DNA of 64,000 nt from the NCBI RefSeq assembly GCF_035046485.1, contig NC_085138.1, positions 275,943,694 through 276,007,693 on the forward strand, read 5' to 3'. Below are positions 11,602-55,425 of this stretch, in pieces. Source of the stretch: Aedes albopictus. Lineage: Eukaryota; Arthropoda; Insecta; Diptera; Culicidae. The stretch's first letter is position 1. The number at the start of each line of letters is the position of its first letter. Made by a program: the position numbers and the translations under genes. The notes under the pieces are model-generated. The model was not told where the DNA came from. It saw only the letters and a program-made list of their open reading frames with translations, and made no database searches.

Positions 11602-12522
11602 CAGGGGATAGACAAAATGATCGGGACAGTCAAAATTTTCTCTTCTCAAAAAATATTCAAATAGCTGTAACTTTTCGAAAAGTGCATCAAATATTCTCAA
11701 ATTTTTACTGTAATTGGATCAACTAGTTGTGTATCAGTGGACAAAATTCGGAAAAGATCGGGCTATTCTGCACGAAGTTATAAAGATTCTAGAAAAAGGT
11801 ATATTTATCCGATAGCCAACTTTGAGCTGTAATATCTTCGGATTCAATAAACTGAATGCAATGAAATTTTGACCATTTATGACTTATATAATGAGCTTTG
11901 AAAAACTTTTGACTTAACTTATAATTCTCAACACAGAAGAAAATTATAACGATGAGATTATTTTTCTAATAAAACACCAAATTTTCTTAAATTTCAACAT
12001 CGTTTCAAAATTCAAGATGCTATTTATAGTTCATTTATATTCCCTCTAATTGTCTTTAATATAAATATGTTTTGAAAGAAAGCAACAACATAGCTGGCAA
12101 TTCATTGAAAAATTTATGGGATGCATATTAAAAATAGATCAATTTACTAAAAAATCATAAAATAAATGAAATCGCTATAACTTTTTCTCTCGTAAATAAT
12201 TTCAAGTTGAGTCAAACGTTTTACAGAGCTCATTATATAAGTCGTAAATGGTCAAAATTTCATTGCATTCGGTTCATTGAATCCGGAGATATAACAGCTC
12301 AAAGTTGGCTATCGGATAAAAATACCTTTTTCTAGAATCTTTATAACTTCGTGCAGAATAGTCCGATCTTTATCAAATTTTGTCCACTGATACACAACTA
12401 GTTGATCCACTTACAGTAAAAATTTGAGAATATTTGATGCACTTTTCGAAAAGTTACAGCTATATGAATATTTTTTGAGAAGGGAAAATTTTGCCTGTCC
12501 CGATCATTTTGTCTATCCCCTG
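11602..12522. mobile_element. TA-flanked foldback element, 921 bp (copy 1)
   Basis: Flanked by TA (11600-11601, 12523-12524), as in Tc1/mariner-type insertions. Ends CAGGGGATAGACAAAATGAT and its complement continue as inverted arms of more than 300 bp. No transposase frame is seen. A sister of the same length, 921 bp, is at 58137-59057. It is inserted inside element Y copy 1. Confidence 0.88.
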
Positions 12523-13227
12523 TATATTATATGTACAGTAATGTTCCGATTTTATCACGTCCTCCGCGCGTTAGTCGTTTATTCATTAATTTGCTGTTAC
12601 ATTTCCCTCTTCTTCAAGATGAATGTTGAAGGCGTGTTTTGCAACGTTGATAATATTGAAATGGGTATAGATGTTGAAGAATATTTCAAAGCATTTTTGA
12701 AAAGGGGCGTGCTTAAATTGTTTAAACAGATGTCGCTGATGGTACGGTGGCATGACTCTCTGAACTTAGCACTTCTGGAAATTTCTCAGTTGTTATCGTT
12801 TTCGAACTTCCTGCGCCCTGCTTTACCGATGATATACAGATAGCTCGTTTGTCAAAGTCTAGAATTCAATATGGACATTTGGACATAACCAGTCTCTTTC
12901 AGTTTATCTATGGCGCTTACGGTGAGATTTCGTAACTCTTTTGAACATTTTTTTTTCATCAAACGGTCTACAAGAGAGCGTTGAGTTGAAGACCTTTGAG
13001 AAAGCGACTATTCATGTTGTTCGTTAGATTATTATAAACAAAAAAATCACTTATTAGTTTTAACTGACTAGTTTGGTGTTGTTTGCTTTGCTGAAGAAGA
13101 AAATAACTATAAAATTTTTAATATCCACAGCGGTAGTATTTTTTTGCTTTTTCGTGAGCATTGTCATGGTATGTACACAGACAAACAAACGTAACACTGA
13201 CGAAATTTTCATTGACCACGCCTTTAA

Positions 13228-13321
13228 CCCTTATGTGGCAGACAGGGTACCCGGGTACCCAGCACCCATTTAAAAAGCACGGTGTAGAAAAAAAGCAAAA
13301 AGTTTGTCGCACACATAACGG
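13228..13321. mobile_element. 94-bp TTAA MITE carrying GGGTACCCGGGTACCC
   Basis: TTAA flanks at 13224-13227 and 13322-13325; ends CCCTTATGTG and CACATAACGG. Y copy 2 has the empty site: at about 42922-42936 its sequence reads straight through ATCGTTGAAGGCGTGG where copy 1 has the insert. The terminal type and the GGTACCCGGGTACC palindrome match the large TTAA element at 41202-44937, so this is probably a deletion derivative of that family. Confidence 0.85.
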
Positions 13322-14617
13322 TTAACGATCATTTTGAATCTTGGTTGTGGCTTTCATAACCAGAAGAGCGCCCATCGTTTTTCTTTGCGTTTGACGTTTC
13401 ACTAGCGTCTTCTGATGACGATATTGCACAACGCAGTGTTTCGTGAAACATTTCCACCAGGTGGTGGTAGTGTGAACTGGGCGATGGGTTTTCACGAAAA
13501 TTGTTCTAGGCGTTTCGTCTGTTTGTCTGTGGTATGTACCACTCATGCATTTGTTGTTGTTGAAGTTACTCGCATTCTTCCGATCATAAAGTCTGTTCTC
13601 TAAGAGGATTTTTTTTTGCAGATAAACTAGACGTATACGCGTATATAAAACTTTTATTATACAGCTTTTGTCTTAAAAATAAGTTTAATTCCATTTTTCT
13701 TATAATCAACAGCTTTTCAACACTATCAAGGGATTTTTTCACCAGTCACGTACAATAAAAAGTATGACACTCTCAATATTTTTGATCACAACACTGGATC
13801 GCGTCTAAGTTTCAAATAGATACTATAGTAAATATGAATAATCAAAAAAAAATATCATGAAAACAACTTGTTCAATTCAGGCGGTAGCCTGTACAATAAA
13901 ATCAGCATCAAAATATAGTTCTCGAAATAATCTACACAGAAAAAAAAAATTTTTTTGTTACTAAATGTAAAAATTGTGAAATGGTTGAAATGTCATAACT
14001 TTTTTGTTTATAAGTTTACCATCACCAAAATTTTATGGTAGATAGCTGATATAATGGGCCATTTCCCCTAAAAAATTTACGTTGGTAAAAAGATAGGGTT
14101 TTGAGATATTTGAGTTTTTGTGACAAAGATCATATTTTTTAAAGTAAAAAAAGAAATTTTTTACAGTGTATATTTTCTAAGGAATCATCATTTAGTTATC
14201 TAACTTTGCTGAAAAATTCATAACAATCGAACAATCCGTTTTTGCTGTACAGCTTTTAGAATATTTTTGAACTATTTTCGCATACACCCTTTTGAAAAGT
14301 TAGTCGTGAGTGAATATGAAGGTTCAATATCGAAAAATGGCGATTTAGATTAAATTCAAAAATTGTGCAAAGTTTCAGATATTTTTGAAATGGTCGCTCA
14401 GGATCGACTGACATGACTCCGTGGAATTCCTCACAAGTGAAGCAATCTCATATGACAACACAAACAATGGAATCGATGAGTGCCATCATCACTTTTTTCG
14501 AATAGATTGCATTATGGAGCCTCGGATTAGTACTTATGGAATTTATGGCATTTCGGACGAAGAATAAACATATTTTTTTCTAACCATTTCATAGCCTTCA
14601 CCTGTTACTCTCATCAT

Positions 14618-20081: not shown

Positions 20082-20814
20082 TAGTCACAATAACCTCATA
20101 ATCACTCATTACCTGTGCCTCGTGGGAGTATTCGATACTACAGTTTTTTCAGTTTTTACGCTTATTTCAAAGGTTTTTCTATCTGCGAGAATTGTTGAAA
20201 AATAAGAACGAATTCAATAATTTTCTACTCCTTCACATATTGTTCTAGGTTACTCACAACGTCTTACTGAAAACTTTTCGCAACAGGACCTACTTCAGAT
20301 TTTTAAAATTCCACGTTATGCTCTCAAAAACTGTAATAATAATGTATGTTCAATTGATTTCTGTTTTCAGGTTTACACTATATGCTTACACAAACTTTCG
20401 TTCGATCTTCAATCACTACGGAGTAGATTACACTTTTTTTATTAACTGTTTGGTCACATTTAACTTGCTCACTGATCGATTTGAGAATGCTAGATCATCG
20501 GATGACTTAACAATGCTAGACCTAGGCGACGCCCTCTTTTCAATAGTCATCTATTGTATTTTTTGGCAAAAACAACATTTCAGTTCTCGTATGAACTGAT
20601 GAGGCTAATCGTCATTAGTTTTAGTGATGAGATCCTCCCAGTAAGTTTGCTGCAGGATAGGTTTAAATTGGTGGTTCTAAATCCCACCACCAGGGGCTCT
20701 CGAGTTACTAAAAGGTAATCGATAACCCTCGCTGGTCCCATGTTTTGAAATTGAAAAATATCTTACTTGGCGATTAGGTTTGGATAAAAATTATATTTTT
20801 GTTGACCTTTTGTA
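20082..20814. other. Spacer, nothing recognised
   Basis: No gene supported. A frame at 20318-20599 is open but AT-biased, without motifs or splice context. Confidence 0.3.
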
Positions 20815-22110
20815 ACTACGTTACAAATTTCTATTGGAATCCTTGGAGAAACTACAGGAAGGATGTGTATAGGAATCCTTGCAGAAATCACTTCAGAAAT
20901 CTCAGTAAGAATTTCTAGATAAACCTTATTAGGCATTTGTGGAACAATTCCAAAGATTTTTCAATCAATTCCTCCAAGAGTTTCTCTTGGCATTTTCCCG
21001 GGATTCCTTCAGGAATTCCTGCAGAAGCTTCTCTTGTGAATTTTACGGGTATTTTTTAAAAGATTCCTTCACAATTTTCACTTGGAATTTCCCCAAGCAT
21101 GCCTGATGGGTTTCACGGCTCACGTTATTGTCAGCCGTTAGCAACGAACCAAGATGGCCGAATTCTTCTACCACCTCGAAAGTATCACCCATCTTGATGA
21201 ATTCTGCGGCGATATCGTTCTCACTAGGCACTTTGTTGTTTTTGAGCTGATATATGGCATCCTTAACTCCCCTCAGCGTGGCAGTTGGTTCGATCCCATC
21301 CTCTGTTGCACCAACATAGTCATTTCCTCCGCTGCCTTGATTCCCCGTGCCTACATTCACTTCACTATTCAGGTGCTCGTCGAAGTGCTGCTTCCATCTT
21401 TCGAGCACCTCACGTTTGTCCGTCAGGAGATTCCCGTCCTTATTCCTGCAGGTTTCGGCTTGTAACTCCTCCAACAATTCCTACTGGAATCCCAGCAAGA
21501 ATGCTTGGAGGAATCTTGGCCGGAGATCCTAAAGAAATCTCAGCTAGAATTACTGGATGTATTTAGAAAGGATTGAGAGGATTGCGCAATTTCTGCAGAA
21601 ACCCATCAGGCATTCCTGGAGAAAATCTAAGAGGAATTCCCAAAAGATTTATCCAGGAATTTGTCTTGGATTTTCTCTTGGGATGCCTGCTGGAGTTCCT
21701 CCATAAATTTCTTCTAAGATTCCTTCAGAATTTCCTCCTAGGATTCCTAAAGAGAGTGCTCTTGAATTTCTACCATAAATTCATGCTACGATTCATTCAT
21801 AGATTTATGTTGGAATTTCTCTTGGAATACAATATCCATCCAAATATCTAGAATTCGTTTTTGAAATTCTTGCTGAGATTTTTCAAACATTTTAGCAGGA
21901 ATATATCCAATAATTGCTCTTGATAATTTTCCCGGAATTCCTTGAGAAATACCTGCAGGTATTGCATGGTTAACCCACAAAAAAATCCTATAGAATTTCC
22001 ACTAGAAATTTTTAGAGAACTCCCAGTAGCAATCCTGGAGAAATCCCATGAAGTGCTCCTTGAGATTATTCAAAAGGATTCCGAGTAAGAGGATCAAATT
22101 TCTTAAAAAA
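20815..22110. repeat. Degenerate GGAATTCC-type array, interrupted by an RTE scrap
   Basis: Both flanks of the RTE fragment (20815-21104 and 21480-22110) are built of the same loosely repeated words (CTTGGAATTTC, AGGAATTCCT, TTCCTTCAG). The leucine/phenylalanine-rich frame across 21573-21851 arises from the repeat and is not a gene. Confidence 0.65.
21105..21480 (-). mobile_element. Internally deleted RTE fragment
   Basis: On the minus strand the peptide runs through ETCRNKDGNLLTDKREV and AAEFIKMG and then jumps directly to DTFEVVEEFGHLGSLLTAD. In the open copy at 25203-28202 these segments are about 800 bp apart, with the catalytic reverse-transcriptase core between them. That core is deleted here, so this scrap is dead. 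Confidence 0.8.
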
Positions 22111-36179: not shown

Positions 36180-38625
36180 TACTGACAACGGGGTATTGAC
36201 CAGGTACGGTAAAGGCTGGGTATGCTGCGCAATCCAGATCCCATTGTGATCCACTAGCCTCTGCCCAGCAACTCCTATCCCTACCTCCTCGTCGTACTAC
36301 CGGCCGGAAACTATGAGCAACCTTAGAGAAGATCGGGTAACCAACCCCGGTGGGAACTTTGGTCGTAGGCTGACAGGAAAGGGGAAATTTGCTTAGGCAA
36401 ACCTGAGCGTCTGTTCTCCAGGATGAGCGGCTCACAACAGCGTCTGATCCCCATATTAGGAGCGGCTGATCTACGTCCGAGTGCCAGGGAAGGACTCTAA
36501 GCTCATCTGTGCACTATGGTCCTCCGGAAAGTAGGGGGTTGGTGTCAGGCCCTACGAGCCAGCCGTAAAAAAACATGGTAACGGAAAATCAGCAACAGAA
36601 TAATACGAACCGAGACCAACGGCAACGACCCCAGCGAACAAAAAGGACTTGCGATTGGAAACTCGGTACGTGGAACTGCCGATCTCTCAACTTCAACTAA
36701 CTACTGAAGGACCACGGGTTCGGCATCGTAGCGCTGCAGGAGGTGTGTTAGACAGCATCCAAGGGGCGAACGTTTAGAGGTAACCATACCATCTACCAGA
36801 GCTGCGGCAAAACACGCGAGCTGGGAACGGCTTTCATCGTGATGGGTGATATGCAGAGGCGCGTGATCGGTTGGTGGTCGATCGATGAAAGAATGTGCAG
36901 GTTGAGGACCAAGGGCCGATTCCTTAACTTCAGCATAATAAACGTGTACAGTCCATACTCCGGAAGTACTGATGATGACAAGGACGCATTTTACGCGCAG
37001 CTCGAACGCGAGTACGATCGCTGCCCAAGCCACGACGTCAAGATCATCATAGGAGATTTGAACGCTAAGGTAGGCCAGGAGGAGGAATTCAGACCGACGA
37101 TTGGTAAGTTCAGCGCACACCAGCTGACGAACGAAAACGGTCTACGACTTGATTTCACCGCTTCCAAAAATATGGCCATACGTAGCACCTTTTTCCAACA
37201 CAGCCTTCCTTATCGTTACACCTGGAGATCACTACAGCAGAAGGAATCTCTAATCGACCACGTTCTGATTGACAGACGGCACTTCTCCGTTATTATCGAC
37301 GGCAGGACCTATCGTGGCGCCAACATCGACTCCGACCACTATCTGGTGATGGTCAAACTGCGCCCCAAAACTCTCCGTCATCAACAATGTACGGTACCGG
37401 CGACCGCCGCGGTACAACCTAGAGCGACTGGAACAACCGGATGTCGCCTCAGCATACGCGCAGAATCTCGAAGCCGCATTGCCAGACGAGAGCGAGCTCG
37501 ATGAGGCCCCTCTAGAGGACTGCTGGAGTACAGTGAAAGCAGCCATCAACGACGCAGCCGAGAGCACCATCGGGTACGTGGAACGGAACCGACTAAACGA
37601 ATGGTTCGACGAAGAGTGCAGAACGATTTTGGAAGAGAAGAACGCAGCGAGGGCGGTAATGCTGCAGCAAGGGACTCGACAGAACGTGGAACGTTATAAA
37701 CAGAAGCGGAAACAGCAGACCCGCCTCTTTCGGGAGAAAAGCGCCGCCTGGAAAAAGGGGAGTGTGAAGAAATGGAACTGAGTTTCCCAAGAAACACGGA
37801 AGTTCTATCAGAAGCCCAACGCATCCCGCAACGGCTTCGTGCCGCGAGCCGAAATATGCAGGGATAAAGACGGAGGCCTCTCACGCCTGAATGGCGTGGA
37901 GAACAGAGGCACGGGAGCCCACGAAAACGGAGGAAATCACGACCATTTGGACCATTTGGAATGTGCTGCCTATAAAGTGCTATCCCAGATCATCTTTCGT
38001 CGTCTGTCACCTAAAACGAATGAGTTCGTGGGAAGTTATCTAGCCGGCTTCATCGACGGCCGGTCAACAACGGACCAGATCTTTACCGTACGGCAAATCC
38101 TCCAAAAATGCTGTGTGTACCAGGTCCCAACGCATCAGCTGTTCATCGACTTCAAAGCGGCATACGACAGTATCGACCGCGCAGAGCTATGGAGAATCAT
38201 GGACGAAAACGGCTTTCCTGGGAAGCTGACTAGACTGATTAAAGCAACGATGGACGGTGTGCAAAACTGCGTAAGGGTTTCGGGTGAACTATCCAGTTCA
38301 TTCGAATATCGCTGGGGACTGAGACAAGGTGATGAACTCTCGTGTCTACTCTTCAACATCGCTCTGGAAGGTGTAATGCGACGAGCCGGGCGCAACAGCC
38401 GGGGAACGATTTTCCCAAAATCCAGTCAATTTGTGTGCTTTGCGGACGACATGGACATTATTGCCAGAACATTTGGAACGATGGCAAAGCTGTACACCCA
38501 CCTGAAACGCGAAGCAGCAAAGGTCGGACTAGTGGTGAATGCCTCGAAAACAAAGTATATGTACATGCTGCTAGGCGGAACCGAACACGACCAGATCCGT
38601 CTGGGTAGTAGTGTTACGATAGACG
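36180..38625 (+). mobile_element. RTE retrotransposon copy 3, 5' and central part (decayed)
   Basis: The leader runs from about 36180, with GGTGTCAGGCCCTACGAGCC at 36542. The start ATG at about 36574 begins MVTENQQQNNTNRD and reaches WKLGTWNCRSLN, then a stop from a small deletion. Endonuclease: 36839-37400 (GDLNAKVGQEEEF, NIDSDHYLV). A deletion of several hundred bases joins CRDKDGG to YKVLSQIIFRRL. Reverse transcriptase: 37970-38625 (HQLFIDFKAAYDSIDR, FADD in FVCFADDMDII). The copy is cut at GATAGACG by the hAT-type element and resumes at 51080. Confidence 0.9.
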
Positions 38626-38849
38626 CAGTGGCGTAGCTAGTAATTTGGGGACCCGGTGCGGTACCAAATTGGTGGGCCCCATGAAAATTACAGATAAACA
38701 TATTTTACAATATTAAATCTATTCTTCTAACTCCCAAATAATCACGCCGTTATATTTTGTACAAAGCGTTGAAACAAATCTCGACTTCTCAGCATTGGCG
38801 TGATGCTGGCAGTGGTGGCCAACTGACTGAAGGTTAAAAAATATTTTCT

Positions 38850-39835
38850 GTATTCCTTTCAGAATTTCTTCGGAGGTTTCTGCAAGGATACATCCCGGAG
38901 TTCCATCAATGAACGTATTTTTTTTCTAAGAATTATGACGATTTTTTTAACAATTTATTAATAAATTGCATCAAGTAATCCTTTATGAATTCTTTCAAAG
39001 ATTGCTGTTTCATTTTCTTTTGAAAAAATCTTTCTTGAATAATAATGTGTCTTCAAGAATGTTTCAAGTAATTAATGAAAGGGTGTCATTCAATATTTCT
39101 CTAAACACTCCTTCATGTATTCTTACAGTGTTGTCTCCGAGGATGTTTTCCAAAGTACTTCGAAATACTTCAAAAGATTCTTGCAAAGGCTTCAAAGTCC
39201 TTTCAGATTTTTTTCAAATATTCCTCCATAGTTTCTAACAGGAGTTCCTCCAAATATCCCCTAAATGATTTTTCCACGTATGCAAATCATTTCTCCATTG
39301 ATTTATCCAAGAATTTATCTTGACATTACCTCAAGTATTCATAACTTATCTTGGCGTTCCTTCGAAGATTTCTCAAGAATTTTTCCAAAGATTCTTTTAG
39401 AAATTTATCCAAGGATTCCTTCAAGAATTACTGCAACGCTTTTTTTTCTAAAAAAATCTGCAAGGACTCTTCAAGGAGTTTCTCTAAAGTTTTATTAAGA
39501 GATTAATCCTAGAAATCCTTCAAGAAATTTCAAAAGAATCCATTGGAAAATAATTTTTGAAAAATCTACCAAGGATCCCTACAGAAGTTCTTATAAGAAA
39601 ATTCTGAGAGGAACTTCTGTTGGAATTCTTTACAAAAACCCTTCTGGATTTCTTCCAAAGAATTCTTTAGAATTCATCTACTCTACGAGTTTCCCCAAGG
39701 ATTCCTTCAGGAATTATTGCTAGCATTCCTAGAACCCTTCTAAAAATTTCTATTGTGACTTTTGATCAGACACCTTAGAAATTCATTTAAAAAACTCTCA
39801 TTCTCATTCCGGAAAAAAAATATTCAAAGTTACCT
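38850..39835. repeat. Degenerate GGAATTCC-type array (hAT body, part 1)
   Basis: Loosely repeated words TTCCTTCAAGAATT, CAAGGATTCCT, TTTCTCCAAA and TCAAAAGATTC at irregular 15-30-bp spacing. It resumes at 40829, 46240 and 49030, so it appears to be the original filler of the hAT-type element. Confidence 0.65.
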
Positions 39836-39842
39836 TCAACAT

Positions 39843-40828
39843 CCCAAGTAACATTTTAAGTTTTGTTCGGCTCTACAAGAGATCTTCATGACCAATTTTA
39901 TAAAACTGAATCATACATCAAAACCTCTTGATAACCTCTTTAAGAGTATCTTCCGGCTAAGTGGACCACTCTCGGAGAGGTTTTGCAAACCGCATTAAGA
40001 GTAGAAATAAACCCGTTTTAAAACCTAGTTGAAATATTTCCCATTCTCGATTGTTGTCGTTGTTTTTTTTTTCAACAAAAACTATGACAGCTCAAGATGC
40101 AGAGAAGCTTCTTCGATGGCACGTAAAGTTCAGGAGGATACAGTAGAAAGCGATTATTTCAAAGTAGTATTTTAGTAGTTATTGTGCTGGTAGGCTTATG
40201 CGCATTCGAATTCACCGTGAATATTGAAGTTGCAGAATCATAAAATTAATGCACTTCGAAAATAGTGAATATTATCATCTTGGAATGAAATGTATCCATT
40301 TGTGAATTTAGTAAAACTATCCCGAATCACAAGAAAACTCAGCAGAGAGAGTTTATTTATGTGAGCATGTTATGAACATGGTTGCAAACTACCAATTCAT
40401 TGCTAATTTAAGCAAAATTAACTATTTTTCATTCACGTAAGCTAATTCTTCAATATGGTGACGACCATAATCAGCGAAAATAAAACCAAAGCAAGTTTAC
40501 TTTTATGATGACCGCAATAAACCTAGCAGTCTCGTAGTTTCTGCTTTTCCCTCAACAGATGTCGTTACTAATCGAACGGATCGCCATCTGTTGAGAGTTT
40601 TAGCAGTTTTATTGCGGTAATAATGATTGCCAGAAGGTTTACATATCAGAAAGTTTTGTTTACTCTTAAAATCTGTCTTTATGGATATCTTCAAGTATAC
40701 TATAAAACATTTTATTAATGGTTTTCATAAAAGCAGTCATAAAACTGTGAGTTTTAATTATTGCTGTAATAAAACATTAATAAAAATCAAACAAAACCAA
40801 TCAGCGATAGAATTGTTACTTGGGATCT
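39843..40828. mobile_element. Element with CCCAAGTAACA ends, about 985 bp
   Basis: Left end ATCCCAAGTAACA and right end TGTTACTTGGGAT are perfect complements of about 13 bp; the degenerate repeat continues on both sides. The interior is AT-rich and non-coding. The ends are shared with the 178-bp hairpin at 6141-6318, suggesting one family. Confidence 0.6.
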
Positions 40829-41622
40829 CAGTCAAGCATTTCTCCAGGATTTATTATTGATTCCTCCAGAAGTTTCTCTGAAATTTCGTCCAAAAAAAAT
40901 CTTCGGGGATTCCTGGTAGGGTCAACGTGTCTTAGTAATCCTACAATCCCAAATTCATCCTATTCTAAAACAAAGCAATTACCGCGCCGATTGATTACGT
41001 AATTTTTGTTATCATTCGTGCTCACTTCTAACAAAAATATAAAAAAGCGCTTCATTCCTTTGTTTTCAGTAGAATGAAAATAGGAGCGTATATGCTTACA
41101 TAATAAATGATTTGATAAGATAAAATCAAATGATTTCTTCAGAAGTTTCTACAAGGATTCCTCCTAAGACTGGTTTGCCACTTTATTCGATAATTCTTTA
41201 ACCGTAGTGTGGCCAGCAAAAAAAAAACACCCGTAAAAGGCCGGCAGAATACCCGGGTACCCACGAAATGGAAATGATCATATCTCAGCGATTTTTCCAC
41301 CGATTTTAAATTTTTTTGCCTCATTCAACTCAGAAACTCATTATTCTTCGAGATCGTATTTGGTTGGACCGGTCCGATCACCATAGGTACCGGAAAATCC
41401 GGATTTACGGATTCATGTTTTTATACAATACAATATACGGGATTTTCGGTAGGTTAGTAGCAATTTCGGTACCAAGCATCGTAAAATTGCTTTGGCATAT
41501 TGTATCTGACCGGCCTGGAATCATAAAACGTGTTGACTTTGAAACTGTGATTTCGGAACACGCTTCCCGTGGGGCCATGGTTGACCATAAACACTTTAAG
41601 GTATCCTAGCCTTAACAATGTG

Positions 41623-44535
41623 GAGGAATTCCACGGAGTCATGTCAGTCGATCCTGAGCGACCATTTCAAAAATATCTGAAACTTTGCACAGTTTTTCAA
41701 TTTCATATAAATCGCCATTTTTTTATATTAAACCTTCATATTCACTCACGACTAACTTTTCAAAAGGGTGTATGCGAAAATAGTTCTAAAATATTCTAAA
41801 AGCTGTACAGCAAAAACGGATTGTTCGATTGTTATAAATTTTTCAGCAAAGTTAGATAACTAAATGATGATTCCTTAGAAAATATACACTGTAAAAAATT
41901 TCTTTTTCTACTTTGAAAAAATATGATATTTGTCACAAAAACTCAAATATCTCAAAACCCTATCTTTTTACCAACTTCAATTTTTTAGGGGAAATGGCCC
42001 ATTATATCAGCTATCTACCATAAAATTTTGGTGATGGTAAACTGATAAACAAAAAAGTTATGACATTTCAAACATTTCACAATTTTTACATTTAGTAACA
42101 AAAAAAAAAATTTTTTCTGTGTAAATTATTTCGAGAATTATATTTTGATGCTGATTTTATTGTAAAGGCTACCGCCTGAATTAAACAAGTTGTTTTCATG
42201 ATACTTTAGTTTGATTATTCGTAATTACTATAGTATCTATTTGAAACTTAGACGCGATCCAGTGTTGTGATCAAAAATATTGAGATTGTCATACTTTTTA
42301 TTGTACGTGACTGGTGAAAAAATCCCTTGATAGTGTTGAAAAGCTGTTGATTATAAGAAAAATTGAATTGAATTTATTTTTAAGACAAAAGCTGTATAAT
42401 AAAAGTTTTTTTATACGCGTATACGTCTAGTTTATCCGCAAAAAAAATCCCTCTTACACACTTATTTCTGAATTGCCTGTTCGGTACTTTTTTGACGAGA
42501 TTATAACAGCAGTACGATCTCGGTAGTTTCGGTAATCGATTTTACTGAGGCTCAGTAAAACAACTGTCAAAATCGTATGGAAAAGGTAAACAATGCATTT
42601 TTGCTGAACGAGTTCGGTGCTCAGCAGTTTTAATCTCGTCAAAAAATTACCGAACAGACTTTATGATCGGAAGAATGCGAGTAACTTCAACAACAACAAA
42701 TGCATAAGAGGTACATACCACAGACAAACAGACGAAACGCCTAGAACAATTTTAGTGAAAATTCATCGCCCAGTTCACACTATCACCACCTGGTGGAAAT
42801 GTTTCACGAAACACTGCGTTGTGCAATATCGTCATCAGAAGGCGCTAGTGTGAAACGTCAAACGCAAAGAAAAACGATGGGCGCTCTTCTTGTTATGAAA
42901 GCCACAACCAAGATTCAAAATGATCGTTGAAGGCGTGGTCAATGAAAATTTCGCCAGTGTTACGTTTGTTTGTCTGTATACATACCTGACAATGCTCACG
43001 AAAAAAACAAAAAAATACTACCGCTATGAATATTAAAAATTGTATAGTATTTTTTTTCTTCAGCCACCAACACCAAACAAGTAAGTTAAAATTAATAAGT
43101 GATTTTGTTTATTATAATCTAACGAACAAGATGAACAGTCGCTTTCTCAAAGGTCTTCAACTCAACGCTCTCTTGTAGACCGTTTGATGAAAAAAAAATG
43201 TTCAAAAGAGTTACGAAATCTCACCGAAAGCACCATAGATAAACTGAAAGAGACTGGTTATGCCCAAATGTCCACATTGTGTACAAAATTACGCATTTGC
43301 ACGTCCTGCCGTCTAGAATTTGACAAACGAGCCATCTGTATATCATTGGTAAAGCAGGGCGCAGGAAGTTCGAAAACGACAACAACTGAGAAATTGCCAT
43401 CAGCGACATCTTTTTAAACAATTTAATTACGCCCCTTTTCAAAAATGCCCTGTAATATTCTTCAACATCTATACCCATTTCAATATTTTTAACGTTGCAA
43501 AACACGCTTTCAACATTCATCTTGAAGAAGAGGGAAAACACTTGTCCTCAAATGTAACAGCAAATTAATGAATAAACGACTAATGCGCGGAGGGCGTGAT
43601 AAAATCGGAACATTACGGTGCATAGTATATTATATTATATGTATATATAATATATAATAAAAACAACTTGTTTTACTCACGCAAGGCCATTAACAATAAA
43701 ATCAGCATCAAACTTCAATTTCCGGCCGAAATAATTTACACTAAAAAAAATTATTACTAAATGTGAAAATTGTGAAATGTTTGAATTGTCATAACTTTTT
43801 TGTTTATTTTCATGGTAGATTGCTAATACAATGGACCGTTTTCTCTAAAAAATTACGTTGGTAAAAAGATAGGGTTTTGAGATATTTGAGTTTTTGTGAC
43901 AAAAATGATATTTTTTAATGTTAAAAAAGATTTTTTTCACAGTGTATATTTTCTTAGGAATCGCCATTTAGTTATCTAACTTTGCTGAACAATAAAATCA
44001 GCATCAAATCGCGATTCCCGGCCGAAATAATTTACACAGAAAAATTTTTTTTACTAAATGTAAAAATTGTGAAATTTTTGATATGTTATAACTTTTTTGT
44101 TTATTAGTTTACCATCACCAAATTTTTATGGTAGATTGCTAATACAATGGACCGTTTTCCCTAAAAAAATCAAGTTGGTAAAAAGATAGGGTTTTGAGAT
44201 ATTTGAGTTTTTGTGACAAAAATGATGTTTTTCAATGATAAAATAGATTTTTTTTCACAGTGTATATTTTCTTAGAAATCACCATTTAGCTATCTAACTT
44301 TGCTGAAAAATTCATAACAATCGAACAATCCGTTTTTGCTGTGCATATTTTTGAATATTTTTGAACCATTTTCACATACACCCTTTTGAAAAGTTAGTCG
44401 TGGCTCTAAATAAAAATTTAATATCGAAAAATGGCGATTTAGATGGAACTGAAAAACTGTGCAAAGTTTCAGTTCAATAGAAAATCATGAATTAAAAATT
44501 TTCCTTAATTTTGATGCTGTTGCTTGGAATCGCTC
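41623..44535 (-). mobile_element. Element 'Y', copy 2 (inverted relative to copy 1)
   Basis: Ends GAGGAATTCC (41623) and GGAATCGCTC (44535), flanked by TGTG (41619-41622, 44536-44539). Aligned by eye to the reverse complement of 10389-14432 it matches along its whole length, apart from the three inserts in copy 1 and small indels. 43980-44040 duplicates part of the subterminal repeat. It contains a Cys-pair reading frame at about 43133-43417. Confidence 0.75.
43133..43417 (+). pseudogene. Coding-like fragment of element Y with a C-x2-C motif
   Basis: The frame runs EQSLSQRSSTQRSLVDRLMK, then KCSKELRNLTESTIDKLKET, then LRICTSCRLEFDK and a Ser/Thr-rich end, then stop. It resembles a small zinc-binding N-terminal domain of a transposon protein. 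In copy 1 the equivalent region (about 12845-13020, other strand) has lost the stretch with the two Cys. The opposite strand also has an open frame (MNVES...IEMGIDVEEYYRAFLKRG), so the true coding strand is unsure. No known family recognised. Confidence 0.3.
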
Positions 44536-44973
44536 TGTGGGTTTCAATATGGTATAAGGACATGCTCCCAAAAATATGGATTTTCCGAAAACCACGGTGA
44601 ATAGATCGGTCTAACCAAATATCTTCCCGATACATGATGAGTTTCTGAGTTGAATGAGCTAAAAATTTCCAAAATCGATGAAAAATTGACGGAGATATGA
44701 TCATTTCAATTTCGTGGGTACCCGGGTACCCTTCCGGCCTTTCACGTAATAAAAAAAATGCAGGAGCCCCTCCCTCTGCCCCTCCTCACTTTAAAATTCG
44801 GTCAACCACATTAATAGATGTATATTCACGAGTTCTACGATCTAACAGAGTTCCAACAGCCTAGTCTCAATAATCATCAAAATATCGAGATTTGAAATTG
44901 AAAAAGGTACCCGGGTACCCTGCCGGCCACATAAGTGTTAAGAATGCCTAGAAGCATCTTTTAAGTGATTATT

Positions 44974-46236
44974 GGGTAATTCTCGCTGAGACCGGCCCAC
45001 TATTTACACCTTGTCCTCAAAAATGTTTAAGGTGCCGATTTTCTGAAAGCCCTCGCCTAAAAAGTAAGAAAAATGCATTTGGTTACTCAAATTGATGGAC
45101 CCCCCGTTAGTTAGAGCCACAACAATTTGTGCAGACCCCTCGATTTTGGTCAAATTGTGGCTCACTTAAACCGTTATAACTCGAAAATTTCTCCAACAAC
45201 CACCTCAAAACGAATTGTTGTTGAAAAGAGGTAAGATAGAGCTACTATTTACAATAATAAAAAGTTGGGTCGGCCATATTGATTTTGGCCACCATCTTGG
45301 ATTTTTATACCAAAACATTTTTTTCACCATGAGGGCAACCACCGATTTTCAAAATTTTTGCATCAATTGAAAGCTGGGACATTTATACATAACATATCAA
45401 AAAATTAGAGATGTCTTTTTTTTCTTTCAAAAGTTATCTGCCGTTTTGTAAATCATGCCACTTTTGCGCACTGGGCCCGGTGCCGACCGTTTACATAAAT
45501 GCAGCGTTATTTCGCAGTGTTTACAAACACGAATTTAAATTCTGATGGAAAGCTGAAGGTTAAAGCTTTTCAAAACACTAAAAAAGTTATAAAAACAATG
45601 CCCGCATTATTGAGAAACAGTCAAAAACGGAAACGAACCTCCGATTTTGCCAAATTTTGCGACACGCGCCTTTGTGTATACATGCAGGCGTTAACTCGGA
45701 TGCTGTTGCATGTCATTGCTGGTGCGCATGGAAATGTATGGAGAAAACGTGGCTTAATTTACAAAACTGCAGATAACTTTTGAAAGAAGAAAAAGACATC
45801 TCTAATTTTTTGATATGTTATGTATAAATGTCCCAGCTTTCAATTGATGCAAAAATTTTGAAAATCGGTGGTTGCCCTCATGGTGAAAAAAATGTTTTGG
45901 TATAAAAAATCCAAGATGGCGGCCAAAATCAATATGGCCGACCCAACTTTTTATTATTGTAAATAGTAGCTCTATCTTACCTCTTTTCAACAACAATTCG
46001 TTTTGAGGTGGTTGTTGGAGAAATTTTCGAGTTATAACGGTTTAAGTGAGCCACAATTTGACCAAAATCGAGGGGTCTGCACAAATTGTTGTGGCTCTAA
46101 CTAACGGGGGGTCCATCAATTTGAGTAACCAAATGCATTTTTTTACTTTTTAGGCGAGGGCTTCCAGAAAATCGGCACCTTAAACATTTTTGAAGACAAG
46201 GTGTAAATAGTGGGCCGGTCTCAGCGAGAATTACCC
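44974..46236. mobile_element. 1.26-kb foldback element with about 480-bp arms
   Basis: Ends GGGTAATTCTCGCTGAGACC (44974) and GGTCTCAGCGAGAATTACCC (46236) are exact complements. Pairing continues with few differences to about 45454 on the left and from about 45752 on the right, leaving a unique centre of about 300 bp. ATT on each side is a possible 3-bp TSD. The 95-codon frame at 45499-45783 overlaps the centre and the start of the right arm; no motif recognised. Confidence 0.85.
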
Positions 46237-46239
46237 ATT

Positions 46240-48068
46240 GCAAGTTTAAGATTTCATATAGGGTGTCCATCGAGAATTCTTCAGGAATTGCTTCAAAAAT
46301 TCCTACGGCATTTTTTCCAAGAATTTCTTAAATTTTTCTTCAAACAAATCCTTCGGAATTTCTTCAAATATCTTATTAGGAACCTCTGCGAAGGTTTTAT
46401 CAATCGGATAAAGCATTCTTTGCTTAATTTATTCAATAATTTCTCCAAGAGCTCTATAAAAGTTTACTTTTGGGCTTTTTCCAGGGATTGCTTTAGGAAT
46501 TCTACCAAGGATTTATTGAAAATTCTAAAAGAATTCCTTCAAAGATGCTTTAGAAATTCCTCCCAAACTTTCTTCAGGAGTTTTTCCAAAGATTTATTTA
46601 TTAGTTCATCCAATAAATTCTCTTGCGATTTCTTCAAATATTCAACTGATTCAAATAAAAAAAATAAAGAATTCTTTCAAGAATTCTCACAGAAATTCCC
46701 CAAAAAACAGTGGCAAATAAAAAAAAATCTACTGGTATTCCTTCAAACAATTTTTGTGTTTTTTCTTAGGAAATTGTTTGTGAACTTCCTTAGATTTTCG
46801 GATATTCCTTAGTTAATTCATTGAGATTTTCTTCGGCCGTACCATTGTTAATGCTTTTATTTTTCTTTTAATTCGCAAGAGTGTATCTCATAAAATCTCG
46901 AAAGTAACAATAGACGGAAATCCGTAAGGAATTATCAAATGAAATTTCCACAGGAATTACTGAAGAAGTTTTTTGAGAAATTAATGGAGGAATTTTCCAA
47001 AGTTGCCGCCTCAATTTACGAATTAACTAAGGAATTTTCAAAGTACCTGCCTAATGAATTTCGAAAGGAACTATTGAAAGAACTACAAAAGTCAAGTATA
47101 TAAGCAAAGGGACTGCCATTGAAACTGCCAAAGAAATTGCTGAAGGGAATATCGTAGGGTTTGCCTGATAAATTTCTAGAGCAATTGCCCAAAGAATTTC
47201 GAAAAGTTATGTCGTAGATATCTTGAAAAATTAAAAACCTAAATCATTTTCGAATATTATTACCCAGAAATTTTCGAATGAGTTACTGAACCTAATTTCA
47301 AACGAACTGCCGATATAGTTTTCAACAAAAAAAATCCACAAAAATAATGTTATAGCAATTTTAGGATCAAATCCAATAAAAATGGCTAGAAGAATTTCCA
47401 AAAGTTTTGTAAAAAAAAACTTTGCTAAAGGTAATATGAAAGATTTCCAGGGGATGGCTCACAGGAAAGTCACCAAATGCATTGCCAAAGTAAGTTATTC
47501 CCAAAGTAATTTTACCAGAATATTTTTCAAACGAATTGTCAAAAAAAAAAAACAACGAGAAGTTGTAAATGGAATTTCCAAAGAAATTTCTGTACAAAAA
47601 TATTCTGGAGAAGTTCGCAAAGCCATTTCTGAAGCATTGCCGAGAACTGCACAAAGAAGTTTCCAAAGGAATTGCCTAACCATTTCTCAAAAGAATTGCC
47701 GTAGGAATTTTCAATGAAACTTGTAACAGAATTCCTAAAAAAAATCTTGATAGTTTTTACCAAAGGAATTGCGTACACAATAGCTAAGACAATTGCCAAA
47801 GAATTTCTCTAAAAATAATGAAGGATGTGTAAGGAATTTCCAAATAAATTTTCAAAGATATTCCCTAATTTCATTTGACGTCTTAAATCAGCTGATTTCT
47901 CGGGCCTTTGACAGTTCTCCAATGAAAATGACAGTTTAGCGTTTGCGCCTTTGTTCAGCAGTTTTAAACAGTGGCATACACATACCTGTCAGCTGAAAAG
48001 GCCTATTGCTGCACGGATTTCCAAGCAATAACTGAAATAGATCCAAAAGAAATTTCCAAAGGAAAATT
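46240..48068. repeat. Degenerate GGAATTCC-type array (hAT body, part 2)
   Basis: Loosely repeated AATTCCTTCAAAGAT, AGGAATTTCC, GAATTGCC and TTTCAAAG words. The 200-codon Phe/Leu/Lys-rich frame at 46210-46812 and others near 47400-47700 on both strands follow the repeat and are not genes. 47880-48000 is less repetitive. Confidence 0.6.
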
Positions 48069-48071
48069 CTA

Positions 48072-49023
48072 CACTCATTGCACAATTATGGGTCACTCAA
48101 GGAACAATCACTTCATAATATGAATCGTTTTTCATACAAAAATAACACTTTCATTATTTTTATTTTATATTCTCTTCCTTGAAACTTCTTTTTATCGTTT
48201 TACATAAAAATCTGCTTGTAATATTCACTCTAGGCGGTGAAAATTACTGAAATGTTGGTGAATAATGAAAACCACAATTATGGATCAAAATTGGCTGTGT
48301 AACAATGATGGGTCAATTTGTTGCCTATTATGGGTCACTCAAGAGGAATCGGCTGAACAATAATGTTTTGTCTATTTTTTCAATGAATGGTCACTTATTC
48401 TAGATAGATCAACTATAGTAGAATCTAAAACTGGTCTCAAACCTCTTAACGAAGCGTGTTTTCACGATTTGGAATCAATTTTTCAAAATTGGGACAAAAT
48501 CTCCAACACAACCACCGAAAAAGGCCTAAAAGTATGCAATACCCATGTACGCAGAACTGTCAATATTATGCTGCACAAAAAATGACCCATAATTGTGTGA
48601 TTTTCGGTGTTCCTTGTCACAATAATGAGTCATTTAAATTTTTCCTGAAATAAGCCTTAATTAGCTGCAATCACATGAATTTTTACATTTAGAACGTAAA
48701 TTATACTTTTGTTCTGGTGACGATACCATTTCGCACTTGAAAATCACTAAAACTCGCATTTACAGAGCTTACGAAAGCAGCGCACGCACTTTCTGATGTT
48801 CACAATCGAAGCGTTACTTTGACAGACAGTTTTATGCCGAACAAAATATTACTGACAATATGTATGTTTTGACGTATAAACCCGTGTGCGTATGACACAA
48901 AACAAATCAACTCATCAACGAAAAATGATAATGGCTAACAAAACCTTGCAATCAATTAGTATTTATCTATTAAAGTGAAAAGTGACTAATAATTGTGTGT
49001 GACCCATAATTGTGCAATGAGTG
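48072..49023. mobile_element. TA-flanked element, 952 bp, ends CACTCATTGCACAATTATGG
   Basis: TA at 48070-48071 and 49024-49025; ends CACTCATTGCACAATTATGG and CCATAATTGTGCAATGAGTG are perfect inverted repeats. Copies of TATGGGTCACTC and ATGACCCATAAT recur inside. No transposase. Tc1/mariner-type non-autonomous. Confidence 0.85.
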
Positions 49024-49029
49024 TAATAA

Positions 49030-50760
49030 AAAATGTAAGAGTTCTTTCAGGAATTATTAATAAAATTCGTCCAAGAAATTTTATTGGATTTTTTTTATGA
49101 ATTCTTAATGCATTCATTCGAGGTTTCCATCTGTTGATACTATTAAAGATTTACTTAGCGATAACACCAATTTCGTTCGAATATTCTTCACGAAACTTCT
49201 AAGATTTTTTTCTAAGGATTTCAACATTTGTTCCAAATGAGGAACTACAAGAACTTTTTCTTAGATATCTTTTACGATTCATCTAGGAATAACTTCAAGG
49301 ACTTCTTTACAAATTCCTCCATGATTTGTTTCGAAAGTTGCTACAGCGTTTCTGAAGGAAATTATGTATTCCCAAGAATTCCCAAGAATTTCATAGAGTT
49401 TTTAAATATTTCAACAAACGATTGCTCTGGGGCTACCCCACATGATCCCTTGAGCAAATTTCCCAGAGGAATTCTTTAGGAATTCTTTTAAGATTTGTTT
49501 TTAGAAATTTCTGCAAGAATTCTTTTTGCAATGCCACAAATGGTTTTTCTTGAAGTCGTTTCAAGGATTTCTTACGAAGCATTGTTCAAGCATTTCAAAG
49601 ATTTCTTCAGAAGTTCTTCCAATAATTGCTGTATGAAATCGTCCAAAGATTCCTTAGGCATTTTTTTCAATTGCCCTTTCACGATTCAATAATGAATCCT
49701 TTAAGAAATTCCAGAGAAGACTTCTGTTTCTCCAAGGATTTTTTCAAGCTGCGTTACAAGGATTCCTTCAGGGATATCTCAACGTTTTCCTGCAGATAAC
49801 CCTGCAAGGGTGAACGCATTTATCTCCAAAGGAGTCCTGCACAAATTCCCTCAGAGGGTCTTAAAGAGATTCCACCAAGGCTTCCATCTGAAATTTCTCC
49901 ACGGAAATCTATAGAAATTGTTTTGCAAATCAACATCAACGAATTTGAGGGAAATTCTTTGGGGTTTATGCCATTCATTTCTTTGAAAAATAATCTAGGT
50001 ATTCTTCCAAACTTCCCTTTGCCTTCAAAATTTCTTCAGGAATAATTTACGTGATTCCTCATAGTACTTCTAGTAGTTCTACTACTACTTCACAGTACTG
50101 TAGTAATCCGTCAAGAATGTTATCAAAGATATCTCCAAAATCAACCCAATGATATTTTCCGAATACATCTTAGAATTCATCTAGAAGATTCTTCGAGAAT
50201 TCCTTTAAAAATTCCTACTGAACTTCCTGCAAGCATTTTTACAAGGATTCTTTCGGGAATTCTTCTAAAATTCCTTCAGAAAATCTCACAAGAATCCATT
50301 CAAGAGCCATACCTGATCAAGCATGATCTCAGAAATTCATCAAAGGTATTTTCCATGAGGAACTCCTGCAAGATTCCTTCTTAGAGAAGTCTCTAAAAGA
50401 ATCTTGGAGAAATCCCTTAAGGTTCATCTGCAGAATTCGTTGAAGGACTTCATGACATAATCCTCGAAGGACTTTATGAAGGGATCCAAAGAGGTATTCC
50501 TGATGGAATTCTTGGAGGTTTTCCTGAAGGAATCAATTCAAGTATTCAAAAATCAATGCTTGGAAGAATTCCTGAAGCAATCCATGAAAAAGTTCTGAAG
50601 TAAATCTTAGAGGAATTTTTGTGGGAGTCCTTGAAGTAACTGCTAGATAAATCGTAATACATATTCCCGAAGGCAATCTTGCAGAAACCCTTCAAGGAAT
50701 ACTTGGGAAGAAATACTTCATGAAATTGTTGATACATTGATTTCACTTATTTTTCATACG
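49030..50760. repeat. Degenerate GGAATTCC-type array (hAT body, part 3)
   Basis: The same loose word repeats as at 38850 and 46240 (AGGAATTCCTGA, TTCCTTCAG, AAGGATTC). Orientation of the dominant word changes near 50400, where AGGAATTCCTGATGGAATTC predominates. No gene. Confidence 0.6.
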
Positions 50761-51060
50761 AAAGCAAAAAAAAATCGACAAACTATTGTTATTACGGTTT
50801 TGACCTGACATGTGTTCAGATATTAATTTTCATAACTGCGGCCCCTGAATTTCAGCTGCTACTTTAAGCTAAGTCAACAACTATGTTTGGTCCTGTAATT
50901 AGGATACCAGGGACGTTTTCACAATGCTCATGAATTTTACTTCCATATCGATACTGAATTTCATAAAATAAAATTTAAATTCTAACTAGTGTTAAAAAAC
51001 CTTCCTTGATTTGGAGGCCCCCTGAAATCGGGGGCCCGGTGCGGACCGCACCCATCGCAC
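50761..51060. other. hAT right subterminal region
   Basis: Non-repetitive AT-rich DNA followed by the GC-rich subterminal block CCCCCGATTTCAGGGGGCC (on the complement) leading into GCTACGCCACTG. No gene. Confidence 0.5.
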
Positions 51061-51079
51061 CCCCCTTGCTACGCCACTG

Positions 51080-51710
51080 GATAGACGGGGATACCTAAGA
51101 GGTTGTGGAGGAATTCGTCTACCTCGGATCCTTACTGACGGCTGACAGCAACGTGAGCCGTGAAATTCGGAGGCACATCTCCAGCGGAAGTCGGGCCTAC
51201 TACGGGCTCCAGAAGAAACTGCGGTCGAAAAAGATTCACCCACGCACCAAATGCACCATGTACAAAACGCTAATAAGACCGGTGGTCCTCTACGGGCACG
51301 ACACATGGACCATGCTCGAGGAGGACATGCAAGCACTCGAAGTTTTCGAGCGACGCGTGCTAAGGATGATCTTCGCCGGTGTGCAGGAGAACGGTGTGTG
51401 GCGGAGAAGGATGAACCACGAGCTTGCTGCAGTTTACGGCGAACCCAGCATCCAGAAGGTAGTCAAAGCCGGAAGGATACGGTGGGCAGGGCATGTTTCA
51501 AGAATGCCGGACAATAACCCTGCAAAGCTGGTGTTTGCAACTGATCCGGTTGGCACAAGAAGGCGTGGAGCGCAGAGAGCACGATGGGCGGACCAGGTGG
51601 AGCGTGACCTGGCGAGCATTGGGCGCGACCGAGAATGGAGAGCGGCAGCCACAAACCGAGTATTGTGGCGTACTATTGTTGATTATGTCTTGTCTTAATG
51701 ATGTTGAACA
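51080..51710 (+). mobile_element. RTE retrotransposon copy 3, 3' part
   Basis: Continues the RTE cut at 38625. GATAGACGGGGATACC is followed by a TAA stop and then about 197 codons from EEFVYLGSLLTADSNVSRE through RPVVLYGHDTWTMLEEDM, RMIFAGVQENGVWRRRMN and RIRWAGHVSRMPDN to a terminus of IVDYVLS (stop near 51698), followed by the short tail AACAAATAAACGTATG. It matches the C-terminal half of the open copy closely. Confidence 0.92.
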
Positions 51711-53345: not shown

Positions 53346-53469
53346 GTGAGAGAAGTGATAATAAAACTTGATTCATTGAAAAGAACGTAGGGTGGCTTCT
53401 ATTTTTGTCTGTTTTCCGCTATAACTCAGTGAAATTTAAACCAATTGACACAATTTTTGGGGTTCTATA

Positions 53470-53650
53470 ACATTTACCCGAAAACCATTTACCCGAAAGA
53501 CATTTACCCGAAAACCATTTACCCGAATGTAACATATACCCGAATGCCAAATACCCGAATGCGACATTTACCCGAACGCGACTTTTACCCGAATGCGACA
53601 CTTACCCGAATGCGACACTTACCCGAATGCGACATTTACCCGAATAGTTT
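53470..53650 (+). repeat. Tandem array of CATTTACCCGAANNN units (left)
   Basis: About 11 copies of a 15-17-bp unit with invariant ACCCGAA and variable spacer (AAAC, AAGA, TGTAA, TGCGA). Units nearest the end are 15 bp; inner ones 17 bp. Confidence 0.9.
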
Positions 53651-55133
53651 ATTACTGTGCACAAATTATGATTTTGTGAATAAAGTTCACTTATTTTGTT
53701 CAATTTAAAAAGTGCATGTATTATTTTGTATTGTGGATCAGAAAAGCATTTTGAATATCAAGTTCCTCAAGAACCCATTTTATCAAATTTTCCCTGAAAT
53801 GATCTGCGATAGGAGTTCACAGGGCATATGCTTGAATAAAACTCATAACTGCAGCTTACCTTTGTCATGTTAACACTGTTAGCGTTCACTCTAGATATTT
53901 ACCCTTCTTTGATTCATATGCTGTTCTTTTGATAAGCAAAGAACAGTTTATGATTTAAAGAAGAGGAAATCTCTGTTTGAAGGCCAAATGGTCATAAGTT
54001 CGAAACGATTAAAAAACAGTCCTCGGAAAATCAACATATCATTAGAAAATAATATTTGACAGAAAAGTTTGCAGATTGTTCACCAAACAGAACATCCCAT
54101 TATTAAAAGAAGGAAAAAATCTTAGATGTAGACTTGGAATCCATCACTCAATCATGTAAGAGTGTAATTTAAAAGAACATCATATAATCTAAACAAGGAC
54201 AAAACTTATATGCATCCCAACTAACAATGGTAGCTGAATAACAGCTTATTCAATCAAAATTGCAAAAAATAAGCTTATGAATGGCTTATTCTTCTATTGT
54301 ACAGCATCAGTGTTTGTTGTGCAGTTAGTAGTTCGAACGCCAACAAAATATGCAGCAGTGTAACTCGAAAGAACAGCCTTTGAAGAGAAGAAGGGAAAAT
54401 CTCCGAAGGATAAGTAATAGTTTGGCCACAAAACAACACAGTGATACTATGTCTGTTAAAGAAACTCTACCCCCTTACCCCAAATGCCATCATAACCTCG
54501 AATAGGACATTATTCCAAAAGCCATTTCCCCGCATGGGTCATCACCCCGATAGATAAGTAAAATAGTTCCCTAAAGGATATAGGTAGAAAGATGGATTCA
54601 CGGGTCTCCTATGGAGTTAGTAGTTCATCCGCAACAAACTAAATAACATTTCAACTCCAACTCGAAAAAGTAGCCTCTTTTGAAAAGAATGAATACATTC
54701 TATGGAGAAATTACCAGTTTAGTCAGTACCAGCTGACCAACTCATCAACAGTTCACGAGTGGACAATGTGAATTCGAAAGAACAGCCTATTTTAAAAAGA
54801 AGGCAAATCTTAGAAGAAGTGGATAATACTTGCGGTATGGCTGCCAGTTTGTGACCGTGTATATAAGTAGCTAATTTTGCATTTTTTGGGCGACCTCCTG
54901 ATTGATTCGGATTGGCGTTCGGGCTAATTGGATGGAGCCGTAAAAGAACAGAATATCAACAAAAATCCTTTGATTAAAATAGCATTGGGACAGCCAGTTG
55001 GTCCTGTACCAGAGTGCTTGATGATCACTCAGTCTGATTATTATTAGGTCTAACCAAAGCCTGCCATATGATACCGGGCCATAACATATTTATTATTGAA
55101 AAATCATATGGGGATCAAGTACACATTTTTTAT

Positions 55134-55275
55134 ATTTTTCGGGTAAATGTCGCATTCGGGTAAATGTCGCAATCGGGTATTTGTCGCATTCGGGTATTTG
55201 TCGCAATCGGGTAAATGACGTTCGGGTAAATGTCATTCGGGAAAATGTCTTTCGGGTAAATGGTTTTCGGGTAAA
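55134..55275 (-). repeat. Tandem array of TTCGGGTAAATG units (right, inverted)
   Basis: About 9 units, mirror image of the left array, including the same change from 15-bp outer to 17-bp inner units. Two inner units read CGGGTATTTG. Confidence 0.9.
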
Positions 55276-55425
55276 TGTTATAGAACCATTTTTGGAATGC
55301 GATGGGATAGGTATAGTATTTACCCGTGTACAACATTTCAAGTCAATTGGTTCAAAATTGACTGAGTTATAGATAGTGGAAACAGACGAATATAGAAGCC
55401 ACCGCTCAATAGGCGCGATAGCCTA

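What the first reader, a model, noticed from the sequence alone, without database searches (positions are those of the whole stretch)
38618..51087. 12.45-kb hAT-type composite splits an RTE retrotransposon
Perfect 12-bp terminal inverted repeats (CAGTGGCGTAGC) with an exact 8-bp duplication GATAGACG, and clean restoration of the RTE text on excision, show that the whole 12.45 kb is one insertion unit that later swelled. Such a long non-autonomous element, mostly filled with degenerate repeat, is unusual and could have moved as one piece if nesting preceded its last transposition.
Basis: partly seen in the sequence, partly recalled or inferred. Interest (0 to 1): 0.75.

Follow-up and report, generated by a model that had tools for sequence, protein, structure and literature searches.

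The report
Ordinary nested copy of large hAT-transposon family
A roughly 5.4-kb non-coding "jumping gene" from a large family jumped into an older retrotransposon and was then swollen to 12.45 kb by other jumping genes landing inside it, so it is a normal transposon nest, although the family's repeat-filled body is unusual.

Summary
The genome (1.344 Gb) holds 2,248 exact TIR words. All 26 paired copies examined (4.3-16.2 kb, median 6.35 kb) match the window copy's left end, 24 its right end. TSDs are exact in 24 of 26 tested copies including the window. The "degenerate repeat" is the family's inherited body: a decayed 12-bp repeat, collinear between copies, with no coding domain found in two copies scanned. 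The window copy is 12.45 kb because A (~1.0 kb), B1 (3.7 kb), B2 (1.3 kb), D (0.95 kb) and a 137-bp piece were added later: none of 26 copies spans any nested junction, and closest relatives lack the additions wherever informative. So it most likely swelled after landing. Two broken hAT transposase loci end in the exact TIR; one shares its terminal 35-58 bp with 25 of 27 family copies, pointing to the source of mobility. Verdict: a non-autonomous hAT (Tip-like) family; this copy is ordinary. The open curiosity is the long satellite-like body, seen also in a hAT-like element with another TIR.

The parts
38618..38625 (.). left 8-bp target site duplication GATAGACG
38626..38637 (+). left (5') 12-bp TIR CAGTGGCGTAGC; followed by a GC-rich subterminal motif close to GGGGGCCCGGTGCGG
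   Evidence: left end matches the end of a hAT transposase locus
38626..39840 (+). hAT body, segment 1 (degenerate 12-bp repeat)
   Evidence: matches sibling L026 at 89.6%
39841..40826 (.). nested insertion A, ~0.98 kb, inverted repeat (AT)CCCAAGTAAC; AT is either duplicated target or part of the TIR; high-copy and young (its first ~65-70 bp match at 97-100% in 37 of the 39 other places listed)
40825..41201 (+). hAT body, segment 2
41202..44937 (.). nested insertion B1, 3,736 bp, TTAA on both sides, long imperfect inverted repeats
44938..44973 (+). hAT body, short segment between B1 and B2
   Evidence: matches L044, L048, L049 at 97-100%
44974..46236 (.). nested insertion B2, 1,263 bp, palindromic (arms ~495 bp, 98% identical), flanked by ATT
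46237..47867 (+). hAT body, segment 3
47868..48004 (.). segment C, 137 bp, absent from L078 and L079; boundaries from alignment only, no TSD shown
48005..48071 (+). hAT body, segment 4
48072..49023 (.). nested insertion D, 952 bp, 25-bp exact TIR CACTCATTGCACAATTATGGGTCAC, TA on both sides
49024..51079 (+). hAT body, segment 5
51068..51079 (-). right (3') 12-bp TIR, with GC-rich near-palindrome GTGCGGTCCGCACCGGGCCCC just inside
51080..51087 (.). right 8-bp target site duplication GATAGACG
37782..38625 (+). split non-LTR retrotransposon, reverse transcriptase part, upstream flank
   Evidence: PF00078 2.4e-26
51088..51698 (+). split retrotransposon, continuation of the same frame downstream
   Evidence: joined frame; ORF 51099-51698; no Pfam match of its own

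Best explanation
A copy of a large (hundreds of copies) non-autonomous hAT family, of the Tip-like kind, was cut and pasted by a hAT transposase acting in trans into an old non-LTR retrotransposon, making an 8-bp target duplication. The inserted unit was about 5.4 kb: 12-bp TIRs, GC-rich subterminal motifs and a non-coding body that is a decayed 12-bp repeat. Later, unrelated elements A, B1, B2 and D (and a 137-bp piece C) were added inside this one copy and brought it to 12.45 kb. Shown: ends, TSDs, family, collinear body, absence of the nested pieces from the copies examined, and two broken transposase loci ending in the same TIR. Inferred: that this transposase lineage moved the family, that the subterminal motifs are its binding sites, and that the 12-bp body is passive cargo.
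For: TIR and TSD. 2,248 exact TIR words in the genome against 238 for the reversed word. Among the first 100 places listed, 26 plus-then-minus pairs of 4.3-16.2 kb and no minus-then-plus neighbours under 20 kb. TSD exact 8/8 in 24 of 26 copies incl. the window, 7/8 in the other two, 9-bp never (L035, 0/8, left out). All 26 copies align to the window copy, 26 at the left end and 24 at the right end (not L009, L014). Sibling L026 is 5,464 bp, 91% identical over 95%, against about 5.4 kb left of the window copy once nested parts are subtracted. Every 100-bp bin of L026 is covered by 11-26 of the 26 other copies. Nested junctions: 0 of 26 copies span any; closest relatives lack them where informative. 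hATC domains with the exact TIR downstream at 2 of 25 hAT loci read, both also with DUF4371 similarity; the terminal 35-58 bp of one match 25 of 27 family copies at 80-89%, and 0 of 30 shuffled tails with the TIR kept gave a hit.
Against: Neither transposase locus is complete: both frames are broken, no second exact TIR was found in the 5.3 and 4.5 kb read, and the upstream part of L077 looks (by eye) like retrotransposon coding sequence. The other 23 of 25 hAT loci read have only 8-10 of 12 TIR matches. The DUF4371 match of L077 is below that family's cut-off. Apart from the terminus of L074, no match between the L074/L077 locus and the family copies was found; the L070/L072 locus matches only short pieces of L014 and L037, not their termini. 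The typical hAT length in PMC3942097 (2.5-5 kb) is exceeded. The sample is 26 copies from the first 54 Mb of one chromosome plus the 7 closest 5' ends. Two places match part of the body side of the A junction and could not be read.
Confidence: 0.88

Rival explanations
1. The 12.45-kb composite, or part of it, transposed as one unit after nesting.
For: TIRs and TSD are perfect, so mobility of the composite is not excluded in principle; paired copies of 10-16 kb exist. Two places match 31 and 17 bp of body next to A at 89% and 93% overall, unresolved.
Against: No fetched copy shares any nested junction. The one 10-16 kb copy dissected, L031, carries a different hAT-like element with its own TSD.
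Confidence: 0.05
2. The element is a decayed autonomous element of another superfamily with 8-bp TSDs whose gene is no longer recognisable.
For: Its length is more typical of a coding element than of a MITE.
Against: Copies in the young pairs (95-96% identical) L011, L012, L013, L019, L024 have no stop-to-stop frame above 183 aa; six frames of L024 and five of six of L026 give no Pfam family above cut-off; a hAT transposase locus shares the terminus.
Confidence: 0.03
3. The 12-bp repeat body is functional cargo, for example an array of binding or pairing sites selected in the family's source copies.
For: A period-12 model fits 52-62% of segments in five copies against 0-1% in resampled sequence; the body is kept collinear in diverged subfamilies; the repeat recurs in a hAT-like element with another TIR nested in L031.
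Against: In 10 sibling pairs, 12-mer positions change about as fast as the rest (e.g. 0.072 v 0.065, 0.032 v 0.032, 0.020 v 0.022); they are lower in 5 of 10 pairs, clearly so only in L023/L037 (0.055 v 0.084) and L016/L035 (0.063 v 0.089), and higher in the other 5. The test sees mainly decay after insertion, so it is weak.
Confidence: 0.1

Closest known systems
Tip100 and the Tip group of hAT transposons
   Same: 8-bp TSD; TIR CAGGGGCGGAG (PMC12511174, passage seen) agrees with CAGTGGCGTAG at 9 of 11; the linked transposase loci carry the hAT dimerisation domain.
   Different: Tip100 is 3.8 kb and codes for its transposase; this family is non-coding, longer, and filled with a 12-bp repeat. 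No transposase phylogeny was made here.
hAT-derived MITEs (BuT2-related short copies, Mar, BniHAT)
   Same: Non-coding, high copy number, only ends shared with a coding element (PMC3942097, passages; PMC3517528 and PMC7385995, start of abstract in search listings only).
   Different: MITEs are short (24 BuT2-related copies of 532-927 bp in PMC3942097); here 19 of 26 copies are 4.3-7.9 kb and none of the 26 shorter.
Maize Ds elements
   Same: Non-autonomous hAT elements sharing 11-bp TIRs and some subterminal repeats, varying greatly in size and composition (PMC3260210, start of abstract in a search listing).
   Different: Different TIR (recalled); whether any Ds has a long satellite-like body was not looked up.

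Membership tests
hAT superfamily | 8-bp target site duplication | tested here: met
   24 of 26 exact, 26 of 26 at least 7/8; L035 (0/8) left out of that count
hAT superfamily | short TIRs (10-25 bp per PMC3942097) | tested here: met
   12 bp exact, after which the two ends diverge; note that copies were chosen by exact TIR
hAT superfamily | mobilised by a transposase with the hAT C-terminal dimerisation domain | tested here: inconclusive
   not found in the element; two loci with PF05699 and DUF4371 similarity end in the same TIR and one shares its terminal 35-58 bp, but no complete coding copy and no activity test
hAT superfamily | length 2.5-5 kb (typical, PMC3942097) | tested here: not met
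   26 copies, median 6.35 kb; a typical value rather than a strict criterion
Tip group of hAT | transposase falls in the Tip clade of a hAT tree | not tested
   only DUF4371 plus hATC similarity and TIR similarity were seen; that DUF4371 marks Tip-like hATs is recalled
MITE | short (usually under about 1 kb, recalled), non-coding, high copy | tested here: not met
   no coding domain found and high copy, but 4.3-16.2 kb
composite transposon that moves as one unit | at least one other copy with the same internal insertions at the same sites | tested here: not met
   0 of 26 copies, and none of the closest relatives where informative; genome-wide only for A, with two partial matches unresolved

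The most novel reading that the evidence does not exclude
Several hAT lineages in this genome, with different TIRs (CAGTGGCGTAGC and CAAGGGCGTAGCC), independently carry long arrays of the same near-palindromic 12-bp repeat, so that hAT elements act as carriers and spreaders of a satellite, or the array does something for transposition.
Probability: 0.2. Interest if true: 0.6.

Novelty: new member of a known kind. Interest (0 to 1): 0.35.

Why it matters
It corrects a tempting reading: the size of this element is best explained by nesting after landing, not by transposition of a giant composite. It also points to a multi-megabase family (26 pairs in the first 54 Mb of one chromosome suggest some 600 paired copies, about 4 Mb; extrapolation) of long non-coding hAT elements whose bodies are a decayed 12-bp repeat. 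That such long cargo was not shortened to a MITE is the open question.

Tried and rejected
Composite transposition: not supported by junctions. Coding body: six-frame Pfam of L024 and five of six frames of L026, nothing above cut-off (two weak sub-cut-off matches in L024). Constraint on the 12-mers: no consistent effect. Target preference: no strong motif in 26 TSDs. Transposase candidate L057/L065: 10/12 TIR match and no good partner TIR. PDB search of a 382-aa piece of the L077 locus: no match. Literature: in the listings shown (20 of 27 papers; 7 of 9; 1 of 1; 15 of 86; 3 of 3; none; 10 of 22) no title or start of abstract describes this family; repeat libraries such as Repbase or TEfam could not be searched, so it may already be catalogued. 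No autonomous copy with both ends was found.
Full report
The claimed ends are real. CAGTGGCGTAGC occurs at 38626-38637 (+) and 51068-51079 (-) and nowhere else in the window with up to one mismatch (0.09 expected). GATAGACG lies directly outside both. The element is 12,454 bp without N. With one GATAGACG removed, the flanks join into one frame running through the junction, with a stop 3 codons beyond it in the flank itself. The upstream part is a reverse transcriptase (RVT_1 2.4e-26) with an endonuclease domain before it.

The genome (G000, 1.344 Gb; three contigs of 338, 519 and 450 Mb) has 1,105 + 1,143 exact copies of the 12-mer against 114 + 124 for the reversed word. That the genome is an Aedes-type mosquito is recalled from its size and form, not tested. 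Of the first 100 places listed (of 2,248), 26 plus-then-minus pairs span 4,259-16,227 bp (median 6,354), and no minus-then-plus neighbours lie within 20 kb; pairs of 161 bp and over 35 kb were set aside. All 26 were fetched; all 26 match the window copy at its left end and 24 at its right end. The 161-bp pair (L041) is a different small element. TSDs: 24 of 26 exact including the window copy, two with one mismatch, none extending to 9 bp; L035 (0/8) was left out of that count.

The body is inherited, not acquired. With L026 as reference, each 100-bp bin is covered by 11-26 of the 26 other copies (window included) at 0.79-0.93 identity; the two ends have 0.91 and 0.93, though two inner bins also reach 0.91. 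In all 27 copies the two strongest periods are 12 and 24 bp. A period-12 model fits 52-62% of segments in five tested copies against 0-1% in Markov resamplings; the fitted unit runs from AAAAATTTCTTC-like in standard copies to AAGGAATTCCTG in L018, which has an extra array. As window controls, 52-64 kb fitted in 2% and 1-12 kb in 14% of segments with other units. Matches of at least 9/12 to AAGGAATTCCTG cover 7-29% of the copies against 1-3% of resamplings and 1.5% of the rest of the window. The same kind of repeat lies at 20.8-22.1 kb of the window outside the element, and a 4.55-kb hAT-like element nested in L031 (TIR CAAGGGCGTAGCC, TSD GAATGACA) holds about 2.7 kb of it.

The extra length is nested. 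A (39841-40826), B1 (41202-44937, TTAA), B2 (44974-46236, ATT, 98% palindrome), D (48072-49023, TA) and C (47868-48004) interrupt the body. Their sequence has no counterpart in the 26 copies at 1e-5 apart from one 180-bp D-like piece at 79% in L037. No copy spans any of the eight junctions of A, B1, B2 and D by 15 bp; alignments stop at the junction in 8-11 copies at A right, B1 left, B2 right, D left and D right, in 1 at A left, and in none at B1 right and B2 left, where the body piece between is only 36 bp. The seven closest 5' ends (92-96% identity) lack A in 6 (L047 uninformative; L049 is the same copy as L026; L045 and L046 lie 4.75 kb apart with the same alignment and may be one duplicated insertion). 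B1 and B2 are lacking in 3 of 3 informative (L044, L048, L049), C and D in the 2 examined (L078, L079, the same copies as L044 and L048). A genome search across the A junction scored 40 of 1,377 candidates: only the window covers all 140 bases; 37 of the 39 others match the A side at 97-100%, and two (C3:320149117, C1:256432180) also reach 31 and 17 bp into the body side at 89% and 93% overall. I could not read those two, so they stand as unresolved. The B1 and D junction searches did not complete. The copy was therefore most likely about 5.4 kb when it landed; L026 is 5,464 bp at 91% identity. On a tree of 24 copies (3' body region; 3 of 27 dropped for coverage) window and L026 are sisters (0.90), terminal branches 0.037 and 0.028.

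The mobility source is probably a Tip-like hAT. The genome gave 138 PF05699 matches (150 of 194 candidates scored); the only one in the first 54 Mb of C1 is not inside any of the 26 copies. DNA downstream of 25 such matches, 0.7-1.8 kb each, was read. Two have the exact TIR: L070 (in the joined locus PF14291 7.4e-12 and PF05699 1.2e-7) and L074/L077 (PF14291 1.2e-5, below its cut-off, and PF05699 4.6e-7); the other 23 have 8-10 of 12. By my arithmetic about 0.03 exact TIRs would be expected by chance in the roughly 35 kb read. The terminal 35-58 bp of L074 match the left end of 25 of 27 family copies at 80-89%, best E 8.9e-9; 0 of 30 shuffles of that tail with the TIR kept gave a match at 1e-3. 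L070's end gave no such match. Both genes are broken and no partner TIR was found. Tip100's TIR is CAGGGGCGGAG (PMC12511174, passage); the Tip group and typical hAT lengths are from passages of PMC3942097.

Mechanism: cut-and-paste in trans by a hAT transposase recognising the TIR plus GC-rich subterminal motifs (near GGGGGCCCGGTGCGG at the left; its complement within a near-palindrome at the right). The role of the subterminal motifs is inferred. Overall the finding is a correct, well-observed but ordinary transposon nest, in a family whose long repeat body deserves a separate look.

Noticed in passing
window 20800-22100: Same type of degenerate 12-bp GGAATTCC repeat outside the element, unassigned.
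   Followed up: partly
L031/L032 (C1:20155600-20166208), copy coordinates 5338-9887: Second hAT-like element, TIR CAAGGGCGTAGCC, TSD GAATGACA, nested in a family copy and holding about 2.7 kb of the same 12-bp repeat; its genome-wide count was not obtained.
   Followed up: partly
window 53461-55287: Exact 12-bp inverted repeats GGTTCTATAACA flanked by 8-bp ATTTTTGG: possible other DNA transposon.
   Followed up: no
window 10388-14435: Repeat related to nested element B1 (pieces up to 96% identical).
   Followed up: no
L057, L068, L066: Other hAT genes followed at similar distances by TIR-like words GCTACGGCTCTG (two loci) and GCGACGCCTCTG, suggesting a wider set of related TIRs.
   Followed up: no
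L018 (C1:15657639-15666937), copy coordinates about 991-4575: 3.6 kb absent from siblings L020 and L028, including a 2.1-kb array of the 12-bp repeat; no clear TIR/TSD at its edges.
   Followed up: partly
L035/L036 (C1:47349732-47362775): 12.7-kb pair without TSD, right flank reading CACAGTGG (possibly another TIR), and a 1,220-aa open frame inside.
   Followed up: no
L023 and L029 copies: 379-400 bp element with TIR CAGTGCTGAAAA (one mismatch in L023) and 8-bp TSD nested in two family copies.
   Followed up: no
L041 (C1:47939306-47939766): 161-bp element bounded by the same 12-bp TIR, TSD 6/8, different inside.
   Followed up: no
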